From positions 1,566,501-1,630,500 of the forward strand of contig NZ_CP131039.1 of the NCBI RefSeq assembly GCF_030657335.1: a stretch of 64,000 nucleotides of DNA, given 5' to 3'. The notes below the pieces were generated by a model. The model did not search any database. It saw only the letters and a program-made list of their open reading frames with translations, and was not told the DNA's origin. Positions 2 through 64,000 of this stretch are shown in pieces. The position numbers were made by a program, and so were the translations under genes. Each line of letters opens with the position of its first letter. Position 1 is the stretch's first letter. The stretch comes from Croceibacterium aestuarii. GTDB lineage: Bacteria; Pseudomonadota; Alphaproteobacteria; Sphingomonadales; Sphingomonadaceae.

Positions 2-49
2 GTCCTCGAAGCGAAGATCGACGCCTGGATCGCCGCGAGCAAGGCCTGA
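2..49 (+). CDS. 3' end of an unidentified gene (partial)
   Basis: Only the last 15 codons are inside the window, reading VLEAKIDAWIAASKA and then TGA. The reading frame is open to the window edge. Too little remains to assign a family. A 16-base perfect palindrome (ATCCGCCGCGGCGGAT, 49-64) begins at the stop codon and may help end transcription, but no T-run follows it. Confidence 0.45.
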   Translation, partial: VLEAKIDAWIAASKA

Positions 50-86
50 TCCGCCGCGGCGGATTCGCCGTCTCAGCTCCGCAGGA

Positions 87-296
87 TCATGCCCCGGTGG
101 CGCAGGCTTTCTTGCCCTTGGCCATCCAGACGAGGCCGGCGAGCGCCAGGCCGATCGGCACGCCCACGACCGCGCCAAGCGCGGCGTCTGAGAGCTCGAG
201 CTTGCCAAGCAGCGGAAGCAGGATAGCAGGCAGGACTGCCGGCATCACGACGATCGAAAGGAAGCGTGCGCGCGGGTTTCTGGGTTTGCTTGTCAT
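87..296 (-). CDS. small two-helix membrane protein
   Basis: This 69-aa protein is basic at both ends (MTSKPRNPRAR at the start, MAKGKKACATGA at the end) and has two hydrophobic stretches, about residues 12-30 and 38-57, separated by a short KLELSD loop. It is therefore predicted to be a small inner-membrane protein. A good ribosome binding site (AAGGAGG) sits about 10 bases before the ATG. It is the last gene of a four-gene minus-strand cassette that also encodes a winged-helix regulator, a four-helix membrane protein and a CPBP protease; the gap to the regulator is 33 bases. No function is recognised. Confidence 0.7.
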   Translation of the reverse strand: MTSKPRNPRARFLSIVVMPAVLPAILLPLLGKLELSDAALGAVVGVPIGLALAGLVWMAKGKKACATGA

Positions 297-329
297 GTGA
301 AAGGTACCTCCTTTGTGGGTCTATCCGCC

Positions 330-641
330 CTACTGGGCGGCGACTGCCTGTTCGGCGCTGTCGATCAATGCCTGCAGCGCGCTCATGTGCGACGCGAAGG
401 CGGCGCGGCCCTTGCGGGTGAAACTTGCCCAGGTCCGCGAGCGTCCGTCGAGCGGGCTCTTCTTGAGGCTCACGTAGCCGGCCTCGACCAGCGCCGCGAG
501 ATGCTTGGAGAGCACCGAATCGCTCACGCCAGTGATCTCGCGCAGCTTGGCGAATTCGGCGCTGTCCGCGGTCGCCAGCACGGTGGCGATCTGCAACCGG
601 GCCGGCGCGTGGAGCTGCGGGTCGAGTACGACCGGAGTCAC
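330..641 (-). CDS. winged helix-turn-helix transcriptional regulator
   Basis: This 103-aa protein is almost entirely one winged-helix DNA-binding domain. The recognition region reads LREITGVSDSVLSKHLAALVEAGYVSL, and the wing (KKSPLDGRSRTWASFTRKGRAAF) follows, as in MarR/ArsR-like one-domain regulators. The chosen GTG start overlaps the TGA stop of the upstream membrane-protein gene (GTGA), which implies translational coupling. Such regulators usually control their own operon. The ACTTTCCA-type palindromes in front of the cassette are the obvious candidate target, but that link is inference. No metal-binding cysteines are visible. Confidence 0.82.
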   Translation of the reverse strand: MTPVVLDPQLHAPARLQIATVLATADSAEFAKLREITGVSDSVLSKHLAALVEAGYVSLKKSPLDGRSRTWASFTRKGRAAFASHMSALQALIDSAEQAVAAQ

Positions 642-1096
642 AAGCGACGCTCCATTTCGCGGCGGAAGATGCGGCCCCAGATGACACTGGCGCCCGTCGC
701 GATAATGGCCGCTACGACGCCCACCGCGATGTGGGCTGCGGCGCTCGCACTCTGGTCGAGCAGCCAGATCTGGGTGAGCACCAAGGCTAGCATGGCGCCG
801 ACCAGCACGAAGGTGAAAGGCCGAGTCGCGCCCTTGCGGTAGCCGTTGACGAATACGCCATAGCGCTTGAGATCGTAGCGAAAGACCAGCGCGAGGCCGC
901 CCATCGCCACCGCGAGAGTCGCCATCTGGGTGGTGCCGGGAAAGCCCATCCCGCCGATCAGCAACCCCATGATCGCGCCGAAGGCGGCATGCCGCCATGG
1001 CGGACACAGCCCGAGAGCCGCCAGTTGCGCGCGGGTCGCGCCGACATTGTCGAGCGCGGCGCGTGCTTCGGCGGGGGACAGGGTTTCGTTGCTCAT
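638..1096 (-). CDS. four-helix membrane protein
   Basis: This 152-aa protein has a soluble N-terminus of about 35 residues (MSNETLSPAEARAALDNVG) followed by two pairs of hydrophobic helices, roughly residues 37-53, 57-72, 94-112 and 120-140. It ends with the basic tail RIFRREMERRL. I do not recognise a named family. Its stop codon overlaps the GTG of the winged-helix gene, so the two are probably made together, and a membrane protein paired with a one-domain regulator suggests envelope or small-molecule sensing (inference). The CPBP protease gene lies 37 bases upstream. Confidence 0.75.
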   Translation of the reverse strand: MSNETLSPAEARAALDNVGATRAQLAALGLCPPWRHAAFGAIMGLLIGGMGFPGTTQMATLAVAMGGLALVFRYDLKRYGVFVNGYRKGATRPFTFVLVGAMLALVLTQIWLLDQSASAAAHIAVGVVAAIIATGASVIWGRIFRREMERRL

Positions 1097-1133
1097 CGGT
1101 GCTTTCCTCTGTTGCAGGGTGTCGGAGGCCGGG

Positions 1134-1889
1134 TCATGCGACCAGTGACGAATTGGCTGTTCGGCGCAGCATCAGCCGCGAGACGGCAGGCCGTACGATC
1201 AACGCCATGATATCGACCAGCGCGTGCAGGATGATGACTTTGGGCAGCGAACCCGAGACGACGTAGATCCAGGCGAAAAGGGCCCCGACCTGGCTCGTCA
1301 CCAGCACGCCTTTCCAGCCTTGGTACCAGTGCATCAGGCCGAACGCGATCGTGGCCGCGACCAGCCCCACGAGGGCGGAACCGGTCACTGCGGCGATAAG
1401 GAGCGGAAGAGCGAGGCGAAAGAACAGTTCTTCGCTCAGTCCGGCGTTGAGCGAAACCGGGATCGCCATCAGCGTCTCGTGCCCATTGCGGGGCAGCAGG
1501 GGCTCGATATCGCCGACGACCGGATGGGTCATCTTGCGCAACCGGCGATGCCACACGAACGCCACGACCCCCAACGAGAGGGCCGCTCCGATGAAGAATC
1601 CCGCCAGCGTGTCGCCCGACATGTTCTCTATCGGGACATTGGGGTCGCGCGGAGCCAGCCGGGCAAACTCCGAAGGAATGGCGAAAAGAGCGTCCATCCG
1701 GCCTATCGCGGCGAGAATACCGATCGAGCCGAGGCCCAGGATCACAAAGCTCGTCCAGGTCCAGCTCCAGTAGAAGGCCAGGCGGCGCGCCGAATCCTCG
1801 CACGCACGAAATTCCCTGTAGCGGCGGGTTTCGCGCCAGTTCCATGCGAAGATGATGGTCAGCACGGCGGCCAGCAGCATTGTCGGCAT
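1134..1889 (-). CDS. CPBP family intramembrane metalloprotease
   Basis: This 251-aa multi-pass protein carries the three CPBP (Abi, Rce1-like) motifs in order: motif 1 GLSEELFFR with the paired glutamates and arginine, motif 2 FGLMHWYQG with its histidine, and motif 3 ILHALVDI with histidine and aspartate. Bacterial members are intramembrane endopeptidases; no substrate can be read from sequence. I chose the start MPTMLLAAVLTII. An ATG 25 codons upstream would place the conserved palindromes inside the coding region, which is unlikely. It is the first gene of the minus-strand cassette. Confidence 0.85.
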   Translation of the reverse strand: MPTMLLAAVLTIIFAWNWRETRRYREFRACEDSARRLAFYWSWTWTSFVILGLGSIGILAAIGRMDALFAIPSEFARLAPRDPNVPIENMSGDTLAGFFIGAALSLGVVAFVWHRRLRKMTHPVVGDIEPLLPRNGHETLMAIPVSLNAGLSEELFFRLALPLLIAAVTGSALVGLVAATIAFGLMHWYQGWKGVLVTSQVGALFAWIYVVSGSLPKVIILHALVDIMALIVRPAVSRLMLRRTANSSLVA

Positions 1890-1902
1890 TTCGCGACTCC
1901 AG

Positions 1903-1974
1903 ACTTTCCAATGTGGAAAGTGACTAGCCGTGACTTTCCGATTCGCCAAGAGACAATTTTCCAAAATGGAAAGT
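1903..1974. promoter_or_regulatory. operator cluster with palindromic sites ACTTTCCA-N3-TGGAAAGT
   Basis: Site A (1903-1921) is a perfect inverted repeat with 8-base arms and a 3-base spacer (ACTTTCCA ATG TGGAAAGT). Site B (1956-1974) has the same layout with one arm mismatch (ATTTTCCA AAA TGGAAAGT). A degenerate third copy with the same spacing starts at 1933 (ACTTTCCG ATT CGCCAAGA). The centres are 30 and 23 bases apart. The cluster lies between the divergent CPBP cassette and the 128-aa membrane-protein gene, so one regulator could control both directions. The winged-helix protein at 330-641 is the likeliest ligand (inference). Confidence 0.7.
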
Positions 1975-2040
1975 CACGGATTGCCGGACGTGGCCGGCGG
2001 GCGTAGACGCTCTGGGCAGCAGCAGGATAGGGGGCAGGCG

Positions 2041-2427
2041 ATGGACATACCCGCGTGGATCGCATTCTTCATCGGGCTCTATTCGCTCGCCGCCGCGGTC
2101 GGCGAATTTCGCGAGCCCGGGACCTGGGCGGCGATGATCGAGGATCTCGGCCATTCGGCCGGCCTGCGTTTCCTGACCGGGCTGCTATGCATCGTCCTCG
2201 GCGCGGCAATCTATCTTGTCTGCCCGTGGCGCCCCGGCGACTGGCTCGCGATCGCGGTCAATGTGATCGGCGGGCTATGCGCAGGTGAGGGCTTGCTGAT
2301 CCTCGCAGCCGGCGATCGGTTTCTGGCCCTGGCGCGCAAGCTGATGGGGCGAAGCAGCAAGACCTGGGCCGGTTTCTCCGCGCTGCTGGGCATGGCCGCG
2401 CTGCTCGCCGCGCTGTCCCGGCTCTAG
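2041..2427 (+). CDS. membrane protein, unknown function
   Basis: This 128-aa protein has four predicted hydrophobic helices, near residues 4-20, 41-58, 68-87 and 107-127. It starts MDIPAWIAFFIGLYSLAAAVGE. The start codon follows a purine-rich stretch (AGGATAGGGGGCAGG). It is transcribed away from the CPBP cassette and shares the intergenic operator cluster with it, so it probably belongs to the same regulon. No family name is recognised. Confidence 0.72.
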   Translation: MDIPAWIAFFIGLYSLAAAVGEFREPGTWAAMIEDLGHSAGLRFLTGLLCIVLGAAIYLVCPWRPGDWLAIAVNVIGGLCAGEGLLILAAGDRFLALARKLMGRSSKTWAGFSALLGMAALLAALSRL

Positions 2428-2531
2428 CCGCGCGCCATCCTCGCCCAGTTTGACTTTCGCAAACGCGAATCCTGTGGCACAACCCGGCCGGCGGACGGCA
2501 ACGACTGTCCGGAGAGTTGGGAGAGCTTGCA

Positions 2532-3350
2532 ATGCGTTGGGCCGGTTTGGGCATTCTATCGGGTTTGGTTCTGGGCGCGGTGGCGGTTGGTGCCGCAGCA
2601 CAGGATGCGCCGCTTACGGCGGCGCGCGATTTTTCGGGCGTGTGGACGACTTATCGCGAGCCCGGCGGTCCGCCGCGCGCCGGCGGCCCGATCGCCGCAA
2701 CGCCCGAGGTCCCCTTCACCGCGGAGGGCGAGCGGCGGCGGGCCGAATATGCCAAGCTGGTCGGCGAGGACGCCACCCCCGGCTCGTTCAGCGGCGACAA
2801 TCCGGCGGCGCACTGCGTGCCCTACGGCATGCCGACGATGATGCAGTCGGCTGGGGGCTACCCGATCGAGTTCATCATGCGGCCCGAGCAGCTCACTATC
2901 ATCTACGAGGTCGAGAGCGAGACGCGCCGGGTCTACATGCCCGGCCACGGCGTCCCTCCGGAAAAGCGCCTGCCGGTGCGGCAGGGGTACTCCGAAGGGC
3001 GCTGGGACGGCGATACCCTGGTGGTCACGACCACAGATCTCAGCGATGGGCAGGACCAGCGCACCTATCCGCACAGCGAGGAAGCGAAGATCGTGGAGCG
3101 CTTCCACTTGGTCCCCGATGAAAAGGTCGGCAAAGCCCTCGAATACGAACTGACCATGACCGACCCGGTCTATTATACGCAGCCGATCAGCTTCACGAAG
3201 AAGTGGATGCCGCTCAAGGACGGCCACATCATGGCCTACAACTGCACCGAGGAGCCTTGGCTGCGCCTGCTCGACAAGCGCCGCGAACAGCTCGAGGCCG
3301 GCGAACCGATTACCGCCAAGATGGCCGACGTCATCGACGTCTACGAATGA
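2532..3350 (+). CDS. secreted protein paired with a DUF6152 protein
   Basis: This 272-aa protein has an N-terminal signal peptide (MRWAGLGILSGLVLGAVAVG, cleavage after AAAQ). The mature part begins APLTAARDFSGVWTTYREPGG and is rich in charged and aromatic residues, with no recognised catalytic motif. The ATG is supported by GGGAGAG seven bases upstream; a TTG 15 bases earlier is less likely. The DUF6152 gene begins 20 bases after the stop. Such pairs are periplasmic and recur in sphingomonads, to my recollection, but the function is unknown to me. Confidence 0.75.
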   Translation: MRWAGLGILSGLVLGAVAVGAAAQDAPLTAARDFSGVWTTYREPGGPPRAGGPIAATPEVPFTAEGERRRAEYAKLVGEDATPGSFSGDNPAAHCVPYGMPTMMQSAGGYPIEFIMRPEQLTIIYEVESETRRVYMPGHGVPPEKRLPVRQGYSEGRWDGDTLVVTTTDLSDGQDQRTYPHSEEAKIVERFHLVPDEKVGKALEYELTMTDPVYYTQPISFTKKWMPLKDGHIMAYNCTEEPWLRLLDKRREQLEAGEPITAKMADVIDVYE

Positions 3351-3370
3351 TCCGAGTGGAGACCAGAGAG

Positions 3371-3748
3371 ATGAACCGCACTATCCTTGCCCTGGCCGCC
3401 GCAGCCACGTTGGGCTTTACCGCACACGCCGCCGCGCACCATTCCGCGGCGATCTTCGATTTCCGCAATCCCGTGACGCTCAAGGGCACGGTCAAGGCGA
3501 TCAAGGTGGTCAATCCGCACACCCACATGGTGCTGACCATCACCGACGCGAAGGGTACCCGCGACTGGGATTTCGAGGGCCACAGCGCCAGCAACTTCTA
3601 CCGTGCCGGCTTCACCCGCGGATCGGTCAAGGCCGGAGACAAGATCTCGATCACCATCGCCCCGCTGCGCGACGGGCACGACGGCGGCTACATCGTCGCC
3701 TTCACGACTCCCGCGGGCGACACGGTCGGCTTCGCTCCTCCGGGCTGA
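3371..3748 (+). CDS. DUF6152 family periplasmic protein
   Basis: This 125-aa protein has a clear signal peptide (MNRTILALAAAATLGFTAHA) followed by the family hallmark AAHHSAAIFDFRNPVTLKGTVKAI. Two histidines stand immediately after the cleavage site, and the remaining sequence looks like a small OB-fold-like beta domain. The ATG follows GAGAG and lies 20 bases after the previous gene, which suggests one operon. The biochemical role of DUF6152 is not known to me; the exposed N-terminal His-His could bind a metal (inference). The 3' end overlaps the convergent SRAP gene by 47 bases. Confidence 0.82.
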   Translation: MNRTILALAAAATLGFTAHAAAHHSAAIFDFRNPVTLKGTVKAIKVVNPHTHMVLTITDAKGTRDWDFEGHSASNFYRAGFTRGSVKAGDKISITIAPLRDGHDGGYIVAFTTPAGDTVGFAPPG

Positions 3749-4361
3749 GTCGCATCAGCGACGAAGGGTAGGGCTCGAGCAGGGTCTTCGCGTGGTCCCA
3801 GCCGGCGCGCAGCCAGAGGTCCTGCGCCCGCGGGTCTGCCGGGAGAAGGGCCGGCATCGCATCGCAGCCGGCGTCGCGCAGCAGCGCATTCGGCGCGCAG
3901 GTCAGCAGCGCGAAACTGGGCACCTCGCTGTCCTTCCACACCCCGGCGAAGGCGAACAGCGGCTGGTCGGACGCGGAGAACCAGTGGCGCCTGCGCCGGC
4001 CGCGGCTATCGGTGTCTTTGCTCCACTCCATGAAGGCGGTTGCCGGCGCGAGGCAGCGGAATTCGGGATTGCGCAGATTGCCGACCCAGAATGGGCTGTC
4101 GGTGTTGCGCACCGAGAGCACCCCGTGCGGCTCGCCGCCCCACGCCGATGGAGGCGGCGGCACTCCCCAGAGCCGCGGCACCAGGCGCCGCGGCTGGCGC
4201 GGCGCGCCCGGTCCGGCGATGAACTCGCGACCAGCGGTGACGACCGGGGCGAAGCTGGCAGGGGCGAGGTATCCGCCGGCCCACGGATCCTCCCCGGCTG
4301 CTGCGCCGAACGTGCGCGCGATTGCCACGGCATCGGCGTCGAGGCGGTAGAGCACGGTCAT
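3702..4361 (-). CDS. SRAP-family protein (YedK/HMCES-like) lacking catalytic Cys and His
   Basis: SRAP proteins crosslink to abasic DNA sites through an invariant Cys2 exposed by removal of Met1. This 219-aa protein has the family layout: YRLDADAVAIARTFGA at the N-terminus, VRNTDSPF with the DNA-contacting Asn86, RCLAPATAFMEWSK with Glu112, FAFAGVW, and CAPNALLRDAGCDAMPALLP. Two key residues are changed. Position 2 is Thr, not Cys, and the His expected before the AMP motif is Gly165. No alternative start would restore Cys2. It may bind DNA without crosslinking, or be decaying. Confidence 0.8.
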   Translation of the reverse strand: MTVLYRLDADAVAIARTFGAAAGEDPWAGGYLAPASFAPVVTAGREFIAGPGAPRQPRRLVPRLWGVPPPPSAWGGEPHGVLSVRNTDSPFWVGNLRNPEFRCLAPATAFMEWSKDTDSRGRRRRHWFSASDQPLFAFAGVWKDSEVPSFALLTCAPNALLRDAGCDAMPALLPADPRAQDLWLRAGWDHAKTLLEPYPSSLMRLSPEERSRPCRPRES

Positions 4362-4408
4362 GGCCCGCGGCCCTAGACCTCGCCCCGCGCAAGGTCTATC
4401 GAGAGGCA

Positions 4409-4499
4409 TCCCCGGGGAGCGCGCGTGCGCTGAGAGGGAGGGCTCGCATCCTCCGACCCGTCGAACCTGAACCCGTTAGCACGGGCGGAGGGAGCGGGC
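4409..4499 (+). promoter_or_regulatory. TPP riboswitch (THI element)
   Basis: The leader contains the conserved THI-box segments in order: GGGGAGC, GCGCTGAGAGGGAG (P3 with CTGAGA), the GACCCGT-GAACCTGA core, CCGTTAGCACGG and the closing GGAGGGAGCGGG. These match the thiamine-pyrophosphate aptamer and sit just upstream of a 68-aa ORF and thiC, which the element normally represses when TPP is abundant. Confidence 0.93.
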
Positions 4500-4520
4500 C
4501 TGGCGTTTTGACGGGCCATC

Positions 4521-4540
4521 GCTCTCCCCCCGCGAGGAGC
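4521..4540 (+). promoter_or_regulatory. possible Shine-Dalgarno-sequestering hairpin of the TPP riboswitch
   Basis: GCTCTCC (4521-4527) can pair imperfectly with GAGGAGC (4534-4540), which contains the ribosome binding site of the GTG-started gene at 4546. The same CTCTCC stretch could instead pair with GGAGGGAG at the 3' side of the aptamer. This layout fits translational control. It is inference from pairing only. Confidence 0.4.
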
Positions 4541-4545
4541 AGACA

Positions 4546-4752
4546 GTGAAGTCCGAACTCAAGCCATCCGACGATGCCATTCTCATCGCCGCATCGAACC
4601 TGGCGGCGGCACTGGCGCAGTTGCGCCGGCGCGAACTGTCCAACGCCGGCGAGCCCGACGAGCCGTTCAATTACGGAAAGCAGGAGCAGCGGCTGGCGAA
4701 CATGCTGGGCTGGGCGATCGAACAAGTACAAATCCAGATAAAGGGTAAATAA
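4546..4752 (+). CDS. small protein between the TPP riboswitch and thiC
   Basis: This 68-aa soluble protein starts with GTG behind GAGGAGCAGACA and ends at the base before the thiC ATG. The middle is helical with basic residues (LRRRELSNAG) and the end is IEQVQIQIKGK. No motif is recognised. Because it lies downstream of the TPP riboswitch and abuts thiC, it should be co-regulated with thiamine synthesis. A role tied to ThiC is possible but not shown. Confidence 0.75.
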   Translation: MKSELKPSDDAILIAASNLAAALAQLRRRELSNAGEPDEPFNYGKQEQRLANMLGWAIEQVQIQIKGK

Positions 4753-7141
<2,389 letters not shown>

Positions 7142-7215
7142 GGGCGATCGCTCTCAACAGCCGCGCGCAAAGGTGATATTGCCCCGCGCGCATCGATGAG
7201 GGGGGAGTGCGCGCG

Positions 7216-7668
7216 ATGGATCGTCGTCTTGCCATTGGCCTGCTGGCGCTCGCCGCCTGCACCGCCCCGGCCGCGCTCTGGGCGGCGGGCGGGGCGAGCT
7301 TCGATTTCGACCCCGTGCCGCGCTGGGAAGTCCCGGGGTCCGAGGACCAGGACCTCGCCGAGGCCTGCCCGGCGATCCGGCAGGAATGCCCGCAGCTCGC
7401 CCCGTTCGACGAGATCTCCACCGACATCGCCTTCGACGAACTCTACGACAAGGACGGCCTGCTCACTGGCATCCACGTGACGAGATCGACCGGCTGCAAG
7501 CCGCTCGACGAACACCTCCTGCTCAGCCAACGCCACTTCCGCCTCGTCTTCCGCACCGAGGGCCAGCCCGACCTCGACAACATGCGAATGAGCCTCGGGC
7601 CGGGCGTGAACCCCGACGACGTGCGGATGGTCAAGGCGACAGAGACGAGTGTTAGCGTGGGGTGCTGA
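7216..7668 (+). CDS. secreted protein of unknown function
   Basis: This 150-aa protein has a signal peptide (MDRRLAIGLLALAACTAPAA) with a possible but poor lipobox (LAAC). The mature region starts FDFDPVPRWEVPG and contains two cysteine pairs. The start was chosen because GGGGGGAG lies about nine bases before this ATG; a GTG nine bases earlier would overlap that site. I do not recognise the family. It lies directly before a truncated gene and the AT-richer island. Confidence 0.68.
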   Translation: MDRRLAIGLLALAACTAPAALWAAGGASFDFDPVPRWEVPGSEDQDLAEACPAIRQECPQLAPFDEISTDIAFDELYDKDGLLTGIHVTRSTGCKPLDEHLLLSQRHFRLVFRTEGQPDLDNMRMSLGPGVNPDDVRMVKATETSVSVGC

Positions 7669-7692
7669 GGGTTTAATAGACTGTCACTGTAA

Positions 7693-7914
7693 TTCCACCG
7701 TAAATTTAGCGGCGACGGCACCTGGCGCAGCGCGCTCTACGACAAGGCCTTCGAACTGACCGCTCGCCCACAGCCCGGCTGCTCCGACGGCATGAGCGAC
7801 AACCGCTATCTCTACACGGTCGATGTGCTGGTGAAGGGCGTGCGGCGAAAGGGGCATGCGGAGGGGGGGGGTGAGTTTGAGTCAAAGCAGAACTCTGATA
7901 GCTGCTTCAAGTGA
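7693..7914 (+). pseudogene. truncated COG3650-like gene fragment
   Basis: An open stretch without a start codon reads GDGTWRSALYDKAFELTARP and then CSDGMSDNRYLYTVDVLVKG. The motif CSDGMSD matches the C-terminal part of the intact COG3650-type lipoprotein gene at 20579-21073 in this window. The N-terminal half, signal peptide and promoter are missing, and a TAA stands in frame at 7690. The end (GHAEGGGEFESKQNSDSCFK) runs into AT-richer sequence, so the true 3' end has probably been replaced as well. This looks like a remnant at an island junction. Confidence 0.65.
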
Positions 7915-8115
7915 ATGAACCAAACGCGACCGACATTCTATTTTGACTTCGATGAGGAATCTGGAGCAGACGGCGCGGTACCTGCACTGCAGAAAATTCC
8001 TAAGGATCGGGTTTTTTTGGATGGTAGAAATCTTCGTCACCCGGTCGGCGTCTATAACGTCTCGCTTTCCCAAGCTCTCGACTCGCGAGGGCATGCGATC
8101 TTGCTGAAGCTTTAA
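7915..8115 (+). CDS. N-terminal part of an island protein in broken frame
   Basis: This 66-aa ORF starts MNQTRPTFYFDFDEESGADG and stops at TAA just after GHAILLKL. The reading continues in another frame without a start codon: LAEALIVRNPDLKSF follows directly. I therefore read it as the N-terminal portion of the gene that continues to 8897, separated by a frame change near 8095-8110. It could be a real mutation, a sequence error, or two genes. No slippery heptamer is visible at the break. No family is recognised. Confidence 0.5.
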   Translation: MNQTRPTFYFDFDEESGADGAVPALQKIPKDRVFLDGRNLRHPVGVYNVSLSQALDSRGHAILLKL

Positions 8116-8282
8116 TAGTCCGAAATCCTGATCTCAAATCGTTCTCTTCGGACGAGGACAGCAGGTATCTCGCAGACTATATTCTGCTTTCTATTTACGC
8201 AGCTGCCGAGCACGTAGACGACCTTGAGAACGTCCTAAGGCTCCTATTTCACGACGATAGGGAGTATTCTAAGGCTCCAGAA

Positions 8283-8897
8283 GTGAGGCAGTTTAAATCG
8301 AGTCTCAAGTCGTCTAGGGATCGTGTTGCTGGCTTTGCGAACGCCTTGAAGCATGCTCAGGCGAGAGTAAGACTATACCTAGGAGGTATTGAATACGTTG
8401 GCGAGAAACAGTGTTTGGTGGGGTTTTTTATTGAGGGCATTAAGGACGGAGTGATTGGACCCTCCCCTATTGTGCATCAATCGGAGCGGGTAATTGCGCT
8501 CCCATCTTTCTTTTGGGAGATAACGGAATTTGTACTCACTGCCGCAAATTTGCTCGAAATTGCGGTGAGTTCGATCATTTCAACTGAGCCGGCGGAGCGG
8601 GACCGAGAACGTTCCCCGTTGCCCAAGAATCTGATCGAGAAAGTCGTTAGAATTCCGCACTACAGTTTCGACGGTGTCAACGCTGTCGAAAGATGTAAAT
8701 TTCGCTTTAGGGGTGAAGCGTTTACGCAGGTAATAAACGGTGCAAAACTCATGGGCGCGATCGGGAGAGAATGGCCCGTAAGCTCGGATATCCGATTCAC
8801 GAACAGCTTGTTGACTTATGCAGGTGATGGGGTTTCTCGGCAGTTCGCGTTGGTCGACCCAGGCCAGCTTAGAATGCATCGTTGGTCTCGCGGGTGA
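8283..8897 (+). CDS. island protein of unknown function (main part)
   Basis: The listed start is a GTG, giving 204 aa, but the frame is open back to 8058 with coding-like sequence (YLADYILLSIYAAAEHVDDL). The real gene therefore probably begins in the ORF at 7915 and is frame-broken. The protein is soluble and mixed alpha/beta; HQSERVIALPSFFWEITEF and ILLSIYAAAE are its most hydrophobic parts. AT-rich codon use contrasts with the neighbours. No family is recognised. The coiled-coil protein gene follows after 32 bases and may be co-transcribed. Confidence 0.55.
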   Translation: MRQFKSSLKSSRDRVAGFANALKHAQARVRLYLGGIEYVGEKQCLVGFFIEGIKDGVIGPSPIVHQSERVIALPSFFWEITEFVLTAANLLEIAVSSIISTEPAERDRERSPLPKNLIEKVVRIPHYSFDGVNAVERCKFRFRGEAFTQVINGAKLMGAIGREWPVSSDIRFTNSLLTYAGDGVSRQFALVDPGQLRMHRWSRG

Positions 8898-8929
8898 GCG
8901 ATTGAGAGCAATTGTTGGACGGGGGGAAG

Positions 8930-9901
8930 ATGGGCTGGAGGGGAACGCTTAGGGCAATGGAAGCGGCGTCACGCCGAGCGAACCGCGAGGCTGAGCGCAG
9001 GAGGAAGGCCGAACAGAAGGCCCAAATGATCTCTGACGCCGAGGACGCTGTCACAGAGTGGCGCGAGCATCTCCGTGAGATTGTTTCGTTACACGTAAAT
9101 CCAAACGATGACGTGAACTGGCGCGAAATTAGGGATCGGCCTGAGCCAATTGCACCAAGCCGCTCTAATACCGAGGAAAGCGCGGCACAGTCCCAGTTGG
9201 AGGGTTATGAGCCGCGATTCTTCGATTTTCTTTATGGCGGGTCGGAGAAGCGGAGGGCGAGGCTCGCAGACGCAGTCGTCGAGGCGCGGCAACGCGACGA
9301 AACAGAGTTCAGAAAGCGACTGGCTCAGCACGAACAAGACCACGCGGATTGGCTAGCTGACAAGGAACTCGCTCGGCGATTGCTTTCGGGAGATGTCTCT
9401 GCTGAGCGAGACGTTATCAGCGAGATGAAATCCTGGAGCGATGAAGGGCTGATTGGGACGCGTTTGGCATTTTGCTTTTCGGACGAGTACATTCATGCCA
9501 TCGCCTATGTGCACAATGACGAAGTAGTCCCTAAGGTTCGGCGGAAGCAGCTACAGAGCGGCCGCTTGTCAGAGACGAAGATGCCGGTCGCCGAAGCGAA
9601 CGAGCTATATCAAGATTATGTCTGCAGTGTCGCTCTAAAGGTCGCAGGTGACTTGTTCGGGGTGTTGCCGCGCGACGAGGTTTTCGTCACGTGCTGCGCA
9701 AAAATGCTGGACACCACGACGGGGCGTACAGCAGACACACCCATTCTCTCGGTTCGATTTATTCGCGAAACGTTTGCGAACTTGAGGCTTGCCGCGATCG
9801 ATCCATCTGACTCTATGAGAAACTTTGTTCATGAAATGCGCTTCAAGCGAACGAAGGGTTTCGATCCGATCGAACCACTAAAGCCCCTTGAAGGCGAATA
9901 G
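8930..9901 (+). CDS. coiled-coil N-terminal island protein, unknown function
   Basis: This 323-aa protein starts MGWRGTLRAMEAASRRANRE and continues with a long charged helix to about residue 45 (RRKAEQKAQMISDAEDAV), probably a coiled coil. The middle has another charged helical part (FRKRLAQHEQDHADWLADK). The C-terminal half is globular (FCFSDEYIHAIAYVHNDEVVP) with a CC pair in VFVTCCAKM. There is no signal peptide or membrane helix. I remember similar N-termini in uncharacterised proteins but cannot name the family. It is the last gene of the AT-richer island. Confidence 0.65.
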   Translation: MGWRGTLRAMEAASRRANREAERRRKAEQKAQMISDAEDAVTEWREHLREIVSLHVNPNDDVNWREIRDRPEPIAPSRSNTEESAAQSQLEGYEPRFFDFLYGGSEKRRARLADAVVEARQRDETEFRKRLAQHEQDHADWLADKELARRLLSGDVSAERDVISEMKSWSDEGLIGTRLAFCFSDEYIHAIAYVHNDEVVPKVRRKQLQSGRLSETKMPVAEANELYQDYVCSVALKVAGDLFGVLPRDEVFVTCCAKMLDTTTGRTADTPILSVRFIRETFANLRLAAIDPSDSMRNFVHEMRFKRTKGFDPIEPLKPLEGE

Positions 9902-9909
9902 CCGGACTT

Positions 9910-10326
9910 ATGGCCATGACCTATGCCAAAGATTCCACCGGCCCGTTCTACCACGGCACCCGCGCCGACCTCGCGCCGGGCGACCTGCTCGCCCCCGGCA
10001 ACCGCTCCAACTACGCCGACCGCACCCTTTCGTGGATTTACTTCTCGGGTACGCTCGACGCCGCGACCTGGGGGTGCGAGCTGGCGAAGGGCGAGGGGCG
10101 CGAGCGCATCTACATCGTCGAGCCGACCGGCGCGTTCGAGGACGATCCCAACCTCACCGACAGGAAATTCCCCGGCAACCCGACCGAATCCTACCGCAGC
10201 CGCGAACCGCTGCGGATCGTCGGCGAGGTCGAAAGCTGGGAGCCGCACCCGCCCGAACGCCTCGCCGAGATGAAGGCCTTCCTCGCCCGGCTGGACGCCG
10301 AGGGCGGGCCCGAGATCATCGACTGA
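9910..10326 (+). CDS. arr: NAD(+)-rifampin ADP-ribosyltransferase Arr
   Basis: Arr inactivates rifamycins by ADP-ribosylation. The 138-aa length fits the family. The N-terminal block GPFYHGTRADLAPGDLLAPG holds the conserved His, and SNYADRTLSWIYFSG, AATWGCELA, RIYIVEPTGAFEDDPNLTDRKFPGNPT and SYRSREPLRIVG follow in the family order. The ATG at 9910 or 9916 could be used. Its composition matches the chromosome rather than the adjacent island, and sphingomonads often carry intrinsic arr, so recent acquisition is not indicated. Confidence 0.95.
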   Translation: MAMTYAKDSTGPFYHGTRADLAPGDLLAPGNRSNYADRTLSWIYFSGTLDAATWGCELAKGEGRERIYIVEPTGAFEDDPNLTDRKFPGNPTESYRSREPLRIVGEVESWEPHPPERLAEMKAFLARLDAEGGPEIID

Positions 10327-59324: not shown

Positions 59325-59729
59325 TTAGGGCCGTGTGTACGGCACGAAGTCGCCGAGGAAGACGATGCCCGTCGTAAAGCCATTTGTGCGATCGACGGTA
59401 CGGATCACGTCCTGCTTGCAAAGCTGGCTGCTTGTGCGCTTGATAACGAGGATGTCGCTGGCGTCGAGCGAGCGCGGCTCGGTCGGGCGCGAGACCCAGA
59501 TCGTGTCGCCTGCGCGATAGACGATGGCCGTGTGATCGTAGACTTCCAACCGGTTCATCTGGAAGGCGGAAATGCAGCTTTTCGGCGTGCCGGCGACGCG
59601 GCCCTGGAGCAGCTCGGCGAGGCGTGCTTCCTCGCGTACCTGGAAACGGTTCGGTCCGGCGGTTGTCGCGCAGCCCGAGAGGGCGAGCGCGCCGGCGGCG
59701 GCGGCAATGCCAATATATCTTGTCTTCAT
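59325..59729 (-). CDS. small lipoprotein
   Basis: This 134-aa protein has a lipobox (LALSGCATT) and a single globular domain with two cysteines (SCISAFQMNR, LCKQDVIRTV). It ends GDFVPYTRP. It is the last gene of the minus-strand envelope group. No family is recognised. Confidence 0.72.
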   Translation of the reverse strand: MKTRYIGIAAAAGALALSGCATTAGPNRFQVREEARLAELLQGRVAGTPKSCISAFQMNRLEVYDHTAIVYRAGDTIWVSRPTEPRSLDASDILVIKRTSSQLCKQDVIRTVDRTNGFTTGIVFLGDFVPYTRP

Positions 59730-59760: not shown

Positions 59761-60351
59761 CTAGCTCGGGCGCTTGATGGTCGGACCCAGCCGTTCGATC
59801 ACCTCCAGGGCGTGAAAGGCGCGGGTGCTGCTTGCCGGCTTGCGGCCGCGGTGCATGACAATCTCGGCATGGGCCTCGAACCGCTCGACCGTTTGGACTT
59901 CGGCCGGACGGCTCCACAGTGAATCGCCGTAGCCCGGATACCAGTAACGCCAACCAATGCGCGGCTCGTAATAATGCCAGTAGGGCCGCCAGGCGGGGTA
60001 GCCCCACCAGGGATCATATCGCGCATCGGGATAAACTTCGCGCTGAACCTCGTGTTCGACCTCGCGGTCAACGATCTCGAACCAGCCGTATCCCTGCTGC
60101 TGCGTCAGTTCGGCCGCGCGGAACAACAAGTAGCCTTCGACCGTCGCACGCGAGGTGAGCCGGTTGCCCGCGAAGCTGACCAGCCAGCGATCTGCGGCCA
60201 GTCGTTCCTCGTAGTAACCGCCGCTGGTTTTCGCCGCCGGAGCAATCGGCTGGTAGGGGGTCGGCGTTGCGCAGGCCGAGAGCGCCAGGGCGGCGGCGAG
60301 ACCGAGGCCGGCAAAAAACCGGCCTCGGCTGGGGGAGAGTTGGTGAACCAT
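59761..60351 (-). CDS. CC0125/CC1285 family lipoprotein
   Basis: This protein of 196 aa (start at the second Met; an upstream ATG adds four residues) has a lipobox (LALSACATP). TPYQPIAPAAKTSGGYYEER and SRATVEGYLLFRAAELTQQQGYGWFEIVDRE are the family blocks. A Tyr/Trp/Pro-rich C-terminal part follows (WRPYWHYYEPRIGWRYWYPG). Members are uncharacterised. It is close downstream of the acidic secreted protein gene. Confidence 0.82.
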   Translation of the reverse strand: MVHQLSPSRGRFFAGLGLAAALALSACATPTPYQPIAPAAKTSGGYYEERLAADRWLVSFAGNRLTSRATVEGYLLFRAAELTQQQGYGWFEIVDREVEHEVQREVYPDARYDPWWGYPAWRPYWHYYEPRIGWRYWYPGYGDSLWSRPAEVQTVERFEAHAEIVMHRGRKPASSTRAFHALEVIERLGPTIKRPS

Positions 60352-60359
60352 CGTATGCC

Positions 60360-61634
60360 TCACTCGCCAGTCGGCACTTCGTCGGCCGGGATGGCGTATT
60401 CGTGGATGTAGTTGATCACGGCGCGGGAATCGTCGACCGCTGTGGCAAAGGCGTCAAACGTGCCGGTGCCTGAGTAATCAGCGTTGCCGAACACGACATC
60501 GTAGACGTTCACCTCGGTCGGGACCCAGCTGCCATCCGCCTGTTTGACCAGCACGGTCGTCTTCACGTCACCGTACGTGTCCGAGCGGTCGTAGCTGTAG
60601 GCGCTGTAGTCGACGTTCGAATATGTCACGTCCCCGGTGCTCGCGAGATCAATGCCGAGAATGGCGTTCATGTAGGCGACCGCGTCGGGAGCCAGCGTGG
60701 TGAACTTGTCGGCTGCTCCGGCCATCAGGCTGGTGGCGACGATCATGTCATCAACCGTCAACTGGCCGTCGACCAGAAAGTCGAAATCGGTTCCGGGCAG
60801 GTCGGTCACGCCGGGGATGGTTCCCTCGGTCATCAGCGCAACGTAAAGTGCGAGGTTTTCGAGCGGAGCGTCGATCGTCTTGACGCTGCCGTCGGGACTG
60901 GTGACGACCAGGCGGCCGGCGGCATCAGTGCTGAGCGCAGTTGCGTCCGCCAGCAGGGTAACGACTTCCTCGGCGCGATTGTCGAGCACAGAGTTCGGCG
61001 AACGGCCCACGTTGAGGCGGCCGATCTCGACTTCGATTGCCAGGGTCGGGTCGATCGGGGCGCCTTCTTCGTCGAGCGGGATCAGGTTGCCGTTGGCGTC
61101 GATCGGCTGGACGAAGCCCGCGCCGTTGAGGATCGGCACGCCGTTGGCGTCGCGCAGGATAACGTACATGTCGCCGTAGAGATCGCCGCGGGTGCTGCCC
61201 GAATCGCTCGGCGGCTCGCCGTGATCGTTGCGCCCGCCGCCGCCGCCGGCGTAGTCGGGACGGTCGGATTCCTCTTCCGAATCCTCCCCGCCGCTCTCAT
61301 CGCCCGCAGCCTTGCGGCCGATCCCGGCCCAGCTCGGACGGTCGGAGTCTTCTTCGGCATCGGCCACGTCGCGGAAGATGTCTTCCATGCTGCGGTGACC
61401 TTCGCTGCCTCCGGACTCACCCGGCGCGCGGCCTTTGCCCGACTGCTTGCTGCCGCCTTCATGCTCGCTGCCGCTATCGTGATCGCTGCCGCTGTCGTGG
61501 CCGTCGCCGTGGTCCTGCGCGGCGGCAACGCCAACGGGGGCAATCGCGATAGCAATCCCGGCAGTTGCGGTCATAAGCGCGGCCGCTGCCGTGGCGATAC
61601 GGAAATCGGTCATCAGTTTCTTGGAGGTCTTCAT
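60360..61634 (-). CDS. large acidic secreted protein of unknown function
   Basis: This 424-aa protein has a signal peptide (TAAAALMTATAGIAIAIAPV). Next come a His/Asp/Ser-rich stretch (QDHGDGHDSGSDHDSGSEHE), a second acidic region (GGEDSEEESDRPDYAGGGGG) and a globular part with DLYGDMYVILRDANGVPILN and AIEVEIGRLNVGRSPNSVLD. The two DRPxxAG motifs look like a short repeat. It may bind metal or calcium. It lies between the giant barrel protein and the lipoproteins on the same strand. Confidence 0.72.
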   Translation of the reverse strand: MKTSKKLMTDFRIATAAAALMTATAGIAIAIAPVGVAAAQDHGDGHDSGSDHDSGSEHEGGSKQSGKGRAPGESGGSEGHRSMEDIFRDVADAEEDSDRPSWAGIGRKAAGDESGGEDSEEESDRPDYAGGGGGRNDHGEPPSDSGSTRGDLYGDMYVILRDANGVPILNGAGFVQPIDANGNLIPLDEEGAPIDPTLAIEVEIGRLNVGRSPNSVLDNRAEEVVTLLADATALSTDAAGRLVVTSPDGSVKTIDAPLENLALYVALMTEGTIPGVTDLPGTDFDFLVDGQLTVDDMIVATSLMAGAADKFTTLAPDAVAYMNAILGIDLASTGDVTYSNVDYSAYSYDRSDTYGDVKTTVLVKQADGSWVPTEVNVYDVVFGNADYSGTGTFDAFATAVDDSRAVINYIHEYAIPADEVPTGE

Positions 61635-61727
61635 GATCTTCGTCCTTGCTTTACGTTCGATATTGACGACCGTTTGCGGCATGCCGGAAAGCGGCTGAAT
61701 CGGGTGAGTTCCGACTGTGGATTTTAC

Positions 61728-64000
61728 TTAGAGGCGCCACGCAATTCCGAGGCGGAACAACCCTTCGGAGTGATCGAAGCGGTCCGAGTTGTTGCCGTAA
61801 GCCACGTCGTAGGCGGCATATTCGGTGACCGTGTAATCGACCCGCAATCGCACCCGCGGGGCCACGCCGACTTCGAGGCCGAGGCCGTAGCGCAAGCCAT
61901 TTCGCCACTCGCGCGAGCGGGTCGATGCGCCGCTGGTCGAATAGGGGACGTCGAATCGGGTCGTGACCATCCCGAGCCGACCGTAAAGCAGGGCCGCGTC
62001 GCCGAGCAGCAAGCCGGCGCGGGCCGAGGCCCCGAGTGAATAATCGTGCTGCGCCGAATAGATGCGGCCGTTGGGATCGCGCTCGATGTTCCAGTTGATC
62101 GCGCTGATATCGGCCTCGCCCTCGAGACCGAGGTAGGTCCGGCCGAATACCCCGCCGAATCCCGCGAAGATGCCTGCAAGTCCGCCGCGGCTGGCCCTGG
62201 TCACGTCCAGCGCGGTGCCGCCGCTGCGGGTGCCCTGGTTGGAGGTAACCAGCGAACCGTGGCCGATCTGAACGCCTACGTAGGGGCCGGCGAAGTCGAT
62301 CGGCGCCCCGTCGCGCGGTGTCGCGCGGGGCCGCCCGAAGCGGACCCCGCCGCCGAACCGGAACTGGCTTTCGAGCGAGGAGAAGTTGTCGAACTGTCCG
62401 CTGCCCGTCGTGATGTCCAGATCGTCATAGGAAACCACAACGAATTCGGCGCGCACGAAGCTCAGCGCGCCGACCGGGGCCTCGATGCCGCCGCCGCCGC
62501 CGAAGCCGGTGCGACTTGCGGCGCCGGAGTACGAACTTGCCGCGTGATCGTAGCTGGTGCGGAAGTCGGCATTGCTCCAGCCGAACCGGGCGTAGATCAG
62601 GTCGTCGTGCGCGGTGGCCAGGCCGACGCGGGCGGAGAAGCCGTAGGCGTGGTTTTTCGCCATCGAGAACACCCGGTCGGAGTTGTGCGTCCATTCCGGC
62701 CCGTCGACCGACGCTTCGGCCTCGATCCCGAGGTAAAGCGCATCGACCAGCACGCCGTAACCGGCGACCACGACCGCGGAAGGTCCGAAGCCTCCGAAAT
62801 CGGCCGTATTCGCGCCGTTCGAGCCGCGGGGGCCATCGAGGCCCGTGACTTGCGTGCCATGCGCCAACAGAACGCCGGCGTAGGCGCCGCCCGGCGCTGC
62901 GCTGTCGACGCGCAGCGGCATGGCGTCGGCGGCGAACCGGGGGCGCAGCTGCGCGCCGACGCTTACCTCGAAGCGATTGCGCTCGTAATCGTATCCGGCC
63001 GCATCCGAACTGCGTTCGTCGTGGTAATAGGCGAGACCGAGATAGAAGTTGCGGTCGAACCAGTATTTCGCCCACGCATCTCCGCCGATGACGAACTCCG
63101 TGCGCGGATGGCCGACGTAATCGTAGTGAGTGCCGCTCAGCCCGATCCCGGCACTGATGCGCGGGTTCACATTGGCGCGAAGGCCGAGCCGGCCGCTAGT
63201 GAGAATGTAGGCCGAAGCGCCCGGCAAGGTCGTTTCTTCTGCACTGCGGTCGAGCCGGAACGAGCCGCCGAGACCGCCGTCACCGGTCCAGTCGAGTACC
63301 GCCCCCACGTCGAAGGTGGAGATGTCGGGCAGGGCGGGGTCGCGATAGTCGCGCTGCAGCCAGCCGGCGAAGAGTTCGGCGGTGAACTGCCGGCCAAGGC
63401 GGCCGCGCACGCCGGCGGCGAGCGAAACGCCGTCGGAGTTGCGATCGAAGCCGTAATCGTCTGCCGCGTCATCATAATCGCGCCAATCGTATCCCCCTTG
63501 GGCGAACAGTTGAGTGCCCGATGTCAAATCGATTCCCGCGCGGACGCCGATCTCTCCTTGCAGCCGATCGCGGTCGTCGTTGTTGATGGTGCCGGACGAA
63601 GTGGGGACATCGGAAAAATCGTAACGGGTGATCGTACCGGCGAGCCGCCCGCTGAAACGGCCCTTGGTGCCGAGCAGGCCTAGGTAACCGAAGCCGCGCC
63701 GATACTCGGTCGGCTCAAGACCACTCACGGCGTCGGGGGAACCGCGATTCTCGTGATCCCAGCGCCATTCGCCGCCGCCGATGAGCGAAACGCTGTCGCT
63801 CAGCCTCGTGCGGCCGTCGGCCGCCAGCGTCCAGTCGTTGTAGTCTTCGCTGGAAAGTTCGGCGTAGCGCCCGATCTCTCCCTCGGCGCGCAGCGAGGCG
63901 CTGTCGGCGCCGGAGCCGAGATCGGCCCGGACGAACGGACGCGCCAGAAAGTAGAAATCGTCCTTCTCGCGATTGCGAGTGGCATAGACGTTGTCGTTGT
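61728..64000 (-). CDS. giant outer-membrane protein with three predicted barrel units (5' incomplete)
   Basis: The frame is open to the window edge, giving at least 757 residues without a start. The first 400 or so resemble a BBP2-type beta-barrel (LGLLGTKGRFSGRLAGTITR, IGVRAGIDLTSGTQLFAQGG, ISAGIGLSGTHYDYVGHPRT). Two Omp25/OmpA-like eight-strand units follow: GAYAGVLLAHGTQVTGLDGP and, after a linker, GPYVGVQIGHGSLVTSNQGT. The protein ends LFRLGIAWRL. A signal peptide must lie outside the window. No alternative start inside is convincing, because coding-like sequence continues to the edge. Confidence 0.82.
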   Translation of the reverse strand, partial: NDNVYATRNREKDDFYFLARPFVRADLGSGADSASLRAEGEIGRYAELSSEDYNDWTLAADGRTRLSDSVSLIGGGEWRWDHENRGSPDAVSGLEPTEYRRGFGYLGLLGTKGRFSGRLAGTITRYDFSDVPTSSGTINNDDRDRLQGEIGVRAGIDLTSGTQLFAQGGYDWRDYDDAADDYGFDRNSDGVSLAAGVRGRLGRQFTAELFAGWLQRDYRDPALPDISTFDVGAVLDWTGDGGLGGSFRLDRSAEETTLPGASAYILTSGRLGLRANVNPRISAGIGLSGTHYDYVGHPRTEFVIGGDAWAKYWFDRNFYLGLAYYHDERSSDAAGYDYERNRFEVSVGAQLRPRFAADAMPLRVDSAAPGGAYAGVLLAHGTQVTGLDGPRGSNGANTADFGGFGPSAVVVAGYGVLVDALYLGIEAEASVDGPEWTHNSDRVFSMAKNHAYGFSARVGLATAHDDLIYARFGWSNADFRTSYDHAASSYSGAASRTGFGGGGGIEAPVGALSFVRAEFVVVSYDDLDITTGSGQFDNFSSLESQFRFGGGVRFGRPRATPRDGAPIDFAGPYVGVQIGHGSLVTSNQGTRSGGTALDVTRASRGGLAGIFAGFGGVFGRTYLGLEGEADISAINWNIERDPNGRIYSAQHDYSLGASARAGLLLGDAALLYGRLGMVTTRFDVPYSTSGASTRSREWRNGLRYGLGLEVGVAPRVRLRVDYTVTEYAAYDVAYGNNSDRFDHSEGLFRLGIAWRL

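What the first reader, a model, noticed from the sequence alone, without database searches (positions are those of the whole stretch)
61728..64000. Outer-membrane protein with three fused barrel units
The N-terminal BBP2-type barrel is followed by two Omp25-like eight-strand units in one chain of over 757 residues. Fusion of separate barrels in one polypeptide is unusual, because each barrel normally assembles alone through BAM. The two Omp25-like units share motifs (GAYAGVLLAHGTQV, GPYVGVQIGHGSLV), so a duplication is likely.
Basis: partly seen in the sequence, partly recalled or inferred. Interest (0 to 1): 0.6.

Follow-up and report, generated by a model that had tools for sequence, protein, structure and literature searches.

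The report
Three-barrel outer-membrane protein with partner
One bacterial gene encodes three outer-membrane barrels in a row, a rare but already described kind of protein, and wherever the full form was found a gene for an unknown secreted protein lay close by, which suggests that the two work together at the cell surface.

Summary
The gene runs off the window (minus strand, 61728 to 64157) and encodes 809 residues in one frame: BBP2_2, then two OMP_b-brl units. A model of a 50%-identical orthologue has 18+8+8 strands, and each part aligns on its own with a closed barrel. Duplication of the 8-strand unit is supported by a tree.

New here: the full-length fusion occurs in 13 loci, all with a gene for a secreted, Gly/Asp-rich protein of no known family ("gene2") next to it or one gene away. 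In surveys of 397 and 385 genomes no genome had the full-length fusion without a strong gene2 match, or the reverse (11 distinct genomes with both). Single BBP2 relatives lie within 1.5 kb of a GumC-like polysaccharide gene in 20 of 20 loci, the fusions in 0 of 13.

Multibarrels are a described class (Solan 2021, seen only as cited), so this is a new variant. Best reading: a porin of the polysaccharide-cluster lineage, fused to duplicated OmpA-like barrels and dedicated to gene2, exporting or holding it at the surface. Pairing is well supported; export is inference.

The parts
61728..64000 (-). Three-barrel outer-membrane protein gene (809 aa; the 5' 157 bases, with the likely signal peptide, lie beyond the window, ATG at 64157)
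62946..64000 (-). Barrel 1: BBP2-type, 18 strands in the orthologue's model (residues about 41-404; starts about 37 bases beyond the window)
   Evidence: Pfam BBP2_2 43-403; strands; porin folds. Boundaries transferred from the orthologue's model
62337..62888 (-). Barrel 2 (unit A): 8 strands, OmpA-like (residues about 424-607)
   Evidence: boundaries transferred from the orthologue's model
61731..62288 (-). Barrel 3 (unit B): 8 strands, OmpA-like (residues about 624-809)
   Evidence: boundaries transferred from the orthologue's model
62889..62945 (-). Short linker between barrels 1 and 2 (about 19 residues by the model's boundaries; the alignment slice 404-425 is 18-24 residues in the 13 proteins)
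62289..62336 (-). Short linker between barrels 2 and 3 (about 16 residues by the model's boundaries; the alignment slice 608-624 is 15-19 residues in the 13 proteins)
60360..61682 (-). gene2: likely secreted partner, 440 aa as listed (I think the start is M17, at 61634); Gly/Asp/Ser-rich N-terminal region, conserved C-terminal part, no known family
   Evidence: same cluster in 13 of 13 loci
59761..60363 (-). Lipoprotein of the CC0125/CC1285 family (NF047637); overlaps the end of gene2 by 4 bases if it starts at its GTG; near the fusion in 6 of 13 loci
59325..59729 (-). Second lipoprotein-like gene (weak DUF6491, below cut-off); may belong to the operon; one weak homologue beside gene2 in L053

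Best explanation
A three-barrel (18+8+8 strand) outer-membrane protein and a secreted partner protein (gene2) form one surface module. The 18-strand barrel is a relative of single BBP2 porins that sit in polysaccharide clusters; it was fused to an OmpA-like barrel, which then duplicated, and it is no longer found in those clusters. SHOWN by computation: three barrels (in a model of an orthologue), one group of fused BBP2 parts, duplication of the 8-strand unit, co-occurrence and close linkage with gene2. INFERRED: each barrel is folded by BAM from its own last strand; the short linkers make the three barrels lie side by side at 1:1:1; the large barrel serves as a channel for gene2 (or for a polymer that gene2 binds), and the two small barrels hold gene2 at the surface or steady the complex.
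For: Model: 18+8+8 strands (mean pLDDT 69.8, pTM 0.55; strands counted by me). Parts aligned with AlgE Z 20.0 (5.0 A over 308), OmpA Z 19.1 (2.8 A over 179; this entry is itself an integrative model) and OmpA Z 18.5 (2.3 A over 167). BBP2 parts of the 13 fusions form one group against 20 singles, 100/99. Units A and B are sister groups, together split from 13 single 8-strand rows at 100/99. gene2 profile built from 3 loci hit 10 further genomes strongly, and all 10 have the full fusion in the same cluster. The fusion profile found no full-length match in any other of the 397 and 385 genomes. gene2 and barrel trees share 5 of 9 splits, reached by 0 of 2000 label shuffles. 20 of 20 single-BBP2 loci have a GumC-like gene within 1.5 kb, 0 of 13 fusion loci have one in the stretch held. 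Distant gene2-like genes in two further genomes also lie beside an outer-membrane-protein gene, one clear and one weak.
Against: No direct sign of export: gene2 has no known domain and its model failed (pLDDT 35.1), so it could stay periplasmic. Four of 9 splits of the gene2 and barrel trees differ. The model is of an orthologue from 3 sequences only, and one of its five models was poor (mean pLDDT 33.5). The fit of barrel 1 to AlgE is loose (5.0 A) and tied within one Z unit with substrate porins such as a BenF-like porin (19.1), and about as close to OccK7 (19.0), so the fold does not point to polymer export. The 11 carriers' own sequences were in the fusion profile, so finding them again is by construction; only the lack of others is informative, and there only 2 candidates per genome were scored.
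Confidence: 0.45

Rival explanations
1. The fusion is still a polysaccharide porin: the BBP2 barrel exports a polymer made by a cluster elsewhere in the genome, and gene2 binds or organises that polymer at the surface, much as Wzi is linked with capsule organisation (PMC9603273, passage).
For: BBP2 part related to porins that lie beside GumC-like genes, 20 of 20; 87 columns conserved in at least 11 of 13 fusions are kept on average in 61% of those singles. AlgE heads the fold list, but tied with other porins. The window's genome has a Poly_export and GumC/Wzc-like locus near 595 kb and a second Poly_export near 2481 kb, while the fusion is its only BBP2-type match. In G1093 distant gene2-like genes lie on a contig with YjbH and polysaccharide genes.
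Against: None of 13 fusion loci has a GumC- or WbaP-like gene in the stretch held. At least three carriers (G533, G793, G154) also have a separate single BBP2. 12 of the 87 conserved columns are rare in the singles (5 of 20 or fewer).
Confidence: 0.3
2. The barrels are passive structure: the fusion and gene2 form an adhesin or envelope-stabilising complex without transport.
For: 8-strand OmpA-like barrels are often structural or binding proteins (recalled); gene2 is Gly/Asp/Ser-rich at its N-terminal side; sparse distribution fits an accessory role.
Against: The 18-strand barrel is of porin size and keeps many residues of the single porins.
Confidence: 0.2
3. The chain folds as one continuous large barrel or results from a frame error joining genes.
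For: Many of Foldseek's top rows stretch over more than one unit, at very poor TM-scores (TMq 0.11-0.29 in the 50 rows shown).
Against: Each unit aligns alone with a closed barrel; 13 loci encode the same full-length order; no stop or frameshift.
Confidence: 0.03

Closest known systems
Multibarrel outer-membrane proteins (Solan et al. 2021 PNAS; not held, known from passages of citing papers PMC11494523 and PMC8592465)
   Same: More than one barrel domain in one chain; combinations with 8-strand barrels are common (last point recalled)
   Different: Here 18+8+8 with a conserved partner gene; whether this architecture is in their data set could not be checked
GfcD / YjbH (predicted barrels of 12 and 13 strands with a periplasmic domain between; PMC11494523, introduction)
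   Same: Multibarrel, linked to polysaccharide systems
   Different: No YjbH match in Pfam, other strand numbers, no middle domain, three barrels
BBP2_2 single porins (PF10082), and the 18-strand barrels WzpX/S/B of Myxococcus (PMC9603273, passages)
   Same: Barrel 1 is a clear BBP2_2 member; 18 strands; the single relatives examined neighbour polysaccharide genes
   Different: Fused to two more barrels and away from those genes. Whether BBP2 and Wzp are the same family was not tested
AlgE alginate exporter
   Same: Heads the fold list for barrel 1
   Different: 11% identity, rmsd 5.0 A, tied with OprD-type substrate porins

Membership tests
Multibarrel outer-membrane proteins | Two or more separate closed barrels in one chain | tested here: met
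   Orthologue's model 18+8+8 strands; separate alignments of the three parts with closed barrels; prediction only, for a 50%-identical protein, coordinates not inspected
Multibarrel outer-membrane proteins | Exported to the outer membrane (signal peptide, terminal beta-signal) | tested here: inconclusive
   Signal-like N-terminus and last strands of the three barrels judged by eye against a recalled motif; some rows fit poorly; no predictor or experiment
BBP2_2 (PF10082) | Score over the curated cut-off | tested here: met
   241 bits against 23.7
OMP_b-brl (PF13505) | Score over the curated cut-off in each C-terminal unit | tested here: met
   42.6 and 30.9 bits against 28.7
EpsL (TIGR03014) and TIGR03016 | Score over the curated cut-off | tested here: not met
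   20.3 against 275 and 40.5 against 90.85 bits
YjbH/GfcD (PF06082) | Pfam match | tested here: not met
   Not among the three families listed at E up to 1 (HMMER's filters drop most weak matches)
CC0125/CC1285 lipoprotein (NF047637), third gene | Score over the curated cut-off | tested here: met
   198.1 bits against 40
AlgE-type exporter | Fold specifically closer to AlgE than to other porins of similar size | tested here: inconclusive
Polysaccharide-export porin (function) | Needed for secretion of a polymer | not testable with these tools
   Needs a knock-out

The most novel reading that the evidence does not exclude
The fusion and gene2 are a so far undescribed two-part outer-membrane system: a three-barrel protein dedicated to exporting and holding one secreted protein of a new family at the surface, sparsely spread in the window's bacterial class, with gene2-like proteins generally paired with outer-membrane barrels (single or triple).
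Probability: 0.35. Interest if true: 0.68.

Novelty: new variant of a known kind. Interest (0 to 1): 0.52.

Why it matters
It gives a natural three-barrel protein with one inferred origin, an inferred order of events (fusion, then duplication) and a closely linked partner, which makes the open question of what multibarrels are for directly testable. It also ties an unnamed secreted family to outer-membrane barrels.

Tried and rejected
One continuous barrel and frame error: rejected. Intermediates with BBP2 and one small barrel: none among the rows (E up to 1e-30, 2 candidates scored per genome), where the other rows reach at most profile position 450 of 811. gene2 identity: Pfam gave nothing for the window's gene2 and six scattered weak families in 13 members, one member each, best E 0.024; one unrelated solved chain at E 0.22; the model is useless. 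Plasmids: 7 records, all matching the BBP2 part, none covering 80% of the query. Foldseek on the whole model listed TonB receptors first at TM under 0.3: treated as meaningless for the whole chain. Metal binding by a His-rich gene2 was considered and dropped: His is 0-8% of the N-terminal region in 12 proteins. A recurrent small protein near 6 fusion loci was scanned in 4 of the 6 and matched nothing over a cut-off. One gene2 hit, G496 (E 4.9e-4), was set aside as likely chance: it covers only the low-complexity start of the profile (9-125 of 403) and no barrel was found in its flanks at E 1e-4. Solan 2021 is not held. Paper searches listed nothing on this architecture as far as titles and abstract starts show; gene2 has no name to search for, and the term BBP2_2 was read as 'bbp22'. 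Seen of papers: PMC11494523, introduction and passages; PMC8592465, PMC9603273 and PMC10745669, passages only.

Full report
WHAT IS THERE. The frame at 61728-64000 (minus) is open to the window's end. The window lies at 1566501-1630500 of a one-contig 3.35 Mb genome. The next bases give a start at window position 64157 and an 809-residue protein. Pfam: BBP2_2 43-403, E 2.4e-71, then OMP_b-brl, E 4.4e-19. Genome-wide, OMP_b-brl hits both C-terminal units separately and over the cut-off.

THREE BARRELS. In the second look at Foldseek's matches residues 47-410 align with AlgE (Z 20.0, 5.0 A, 308 residues), with substrate porins practically level (BenF-like 19.1, OccK7 19.0); 419-619 with OmpA (Z 19.1, 2.8 A, 179; an integrative model entry); 624-814 with OmpA (Z 18.5, 2.3 A, 167). 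In the 13 proteins the last strand of most barrels resembles a beta-signal by eye, and the alignment slices between barrels are 18-24 and 15-19 residues. As both ends of a barrel face the periplasm (established), the barrels must be neighbours in the membrane (inference).

RELATIVES. A scan of genome contigs found two loci with the same full-length protein: a Sphingomonadales MAG (L033) and a Caulobacterales MAG (L034). Among 98 genomes (the own one included) only the own genome had it full-length; the other listed matches cover the BBP2 part or an 8-strand unit. The window's class is not named by any tool; that it is Alphaproteobacteria is inferred from the two named MAGs.

THE PARTNER. In both loci the neighbours were the same as in the window: gene2 and a CC0125/CC1285 lipoprotein. 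A gene2 profile made from these three loci (A2) hit 5 of 385 class genomes and 8 of 397 family genomes, one of the latter (G496) likely by chance. The ten other new carriers (four of the class, six of the family) all have the full fusion in the same cluster. With the window, L033 and L034 that makes 13 loci: gene2 is directly next to the fusion in 11, and in L033 and L054 the lipoprotein lies between them. Searching the same-sized genome sets with a 13-row profile of the fusion (A5) gave full-length matches in 7 of 397 and 5 of 385 genomes, the same 11 distinct genomes (the own genome is in both sets). Those 11 were in the profile, so the informative part is that no other genome had a full-length match; searches used E up to 1e-30 and scored only 2 candidates per genome. 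The lipoprotein is near the fusion in 6 of 13 loci.

ORIGIN. BBP2 parts of the 13 fusions form one group against 20 single BBP2 proteins (100/99). Units A and B are each one group with moderate support (91/84 and 91/81), and together they split from 13 rows of single 8-strand proteins out of 12 loci (100/99). The singles were best matches among the 98 genomes, not a class-wide sample; L116 and L117 were tried too and gave no row that passed the filter. The simplest order is: one fusion, one duplication, then spread or loss. gene2 and fusion trees of 12 carriers share 5 of 9 splits, all five of them pairs; 0 of 2000 label shuffles reached that (largest 4); the other 4 splits differ. Horizontal transfer was not tested.

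CONTEXT. I took 20 single-BBP2 loci (the ten best single matches of each; two of them, L104 and L105, are nearly the same protein) with flanks. All 20 have a GumC-like match within 1.5 kb of the BBP2 match, and 9 of 20 a WbaP-like one in the stretch held; of the 13 fusion loci none has either (E up to 1e-6). The stretches held are 5.6-14.5 kb for fusions (L033 only 0.7 kb downstream; L058 partly N) and 9.6-18 kb for singles. Of 87 columns conserved in at least 11 of 13 fusions, the residue is kept on average in 61% of the singles, and 12 columns are rare there; I read this as a pore part that has changed little. That 18-strand barrels paired with OPX proteins serve polysaccharide export is published for Myxococcus (PMC9603273, passages). 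The window's genome has a Poly_export and GumC/Wzc-like locus near 595 kb and a second Poly_export near 2481 kb, and the fusion is its only BBP2-type match.

WIDER GENE2 FAMILY. A 13-row gene2 profile over 329 phylum genomes matched 4: the own genome, G250, and two new ones, G1093 and G1045, with short distant copies. Beside these lie outer-membrane-protein genes: in G1093 OMP_b-brl over cut-off, same strand; in G1045 only a weak PagL match below cut-off, divergent. No fusion was found in those stretches.

VERDICT. Multibarrels are a known class, so this is a new variant. The close link with an unknown secreted protein is the main addition; what the pair does remains inference.

Noticed in passing
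L052 (G190) 7351-8334: A second, shorter gene2-like gene directly behind gene2, lacking the middle of the protein
   Followed up: partly
L033 400-1758: gene2 of the Sphingomonadales MAG has an in-frame stop in its N-terminal region; error or pseudogene unknown
   Followed up: no
L058 (G642) from about 7000: A long stretch reads N from within gene2 on, so the 1270-aa frame there is an artefact; left alone
   Followed up: no
L116 (G1093) 3-10142: Two distant gene2-like genes and a single outer-membrane-protein gene, 6-7 kb from a YjbH gene (cut by the stretch) and near a polysaccharide-synthesis gene
   Followed up: partly
L034 11266-12012, L051 8377-8727, L052 7659-8738, L053 10123-10602, L056 10923-11660, L057 7297-8184: A recurrent small protein rich in Gln/Glu/Arg near the fusion in 6 of 13 loci; the L053 match may be low complexity only; 4 of the 6 were scanned against Pfam, nothing over a cut-off
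   Followed up: partly
G000:C1 about 595-598 kb (L121 6879-11413): The own genome's Wzy_C/Poly_export/Wzz-kinase locus; no BBP2 porin was matched there
   Followed up: partly
window 59325-59729: Possible lipoprotein gene with weak DUF6491 similarity behind the operon; one weak homologue beside gene2 in L053
   Followed up: no
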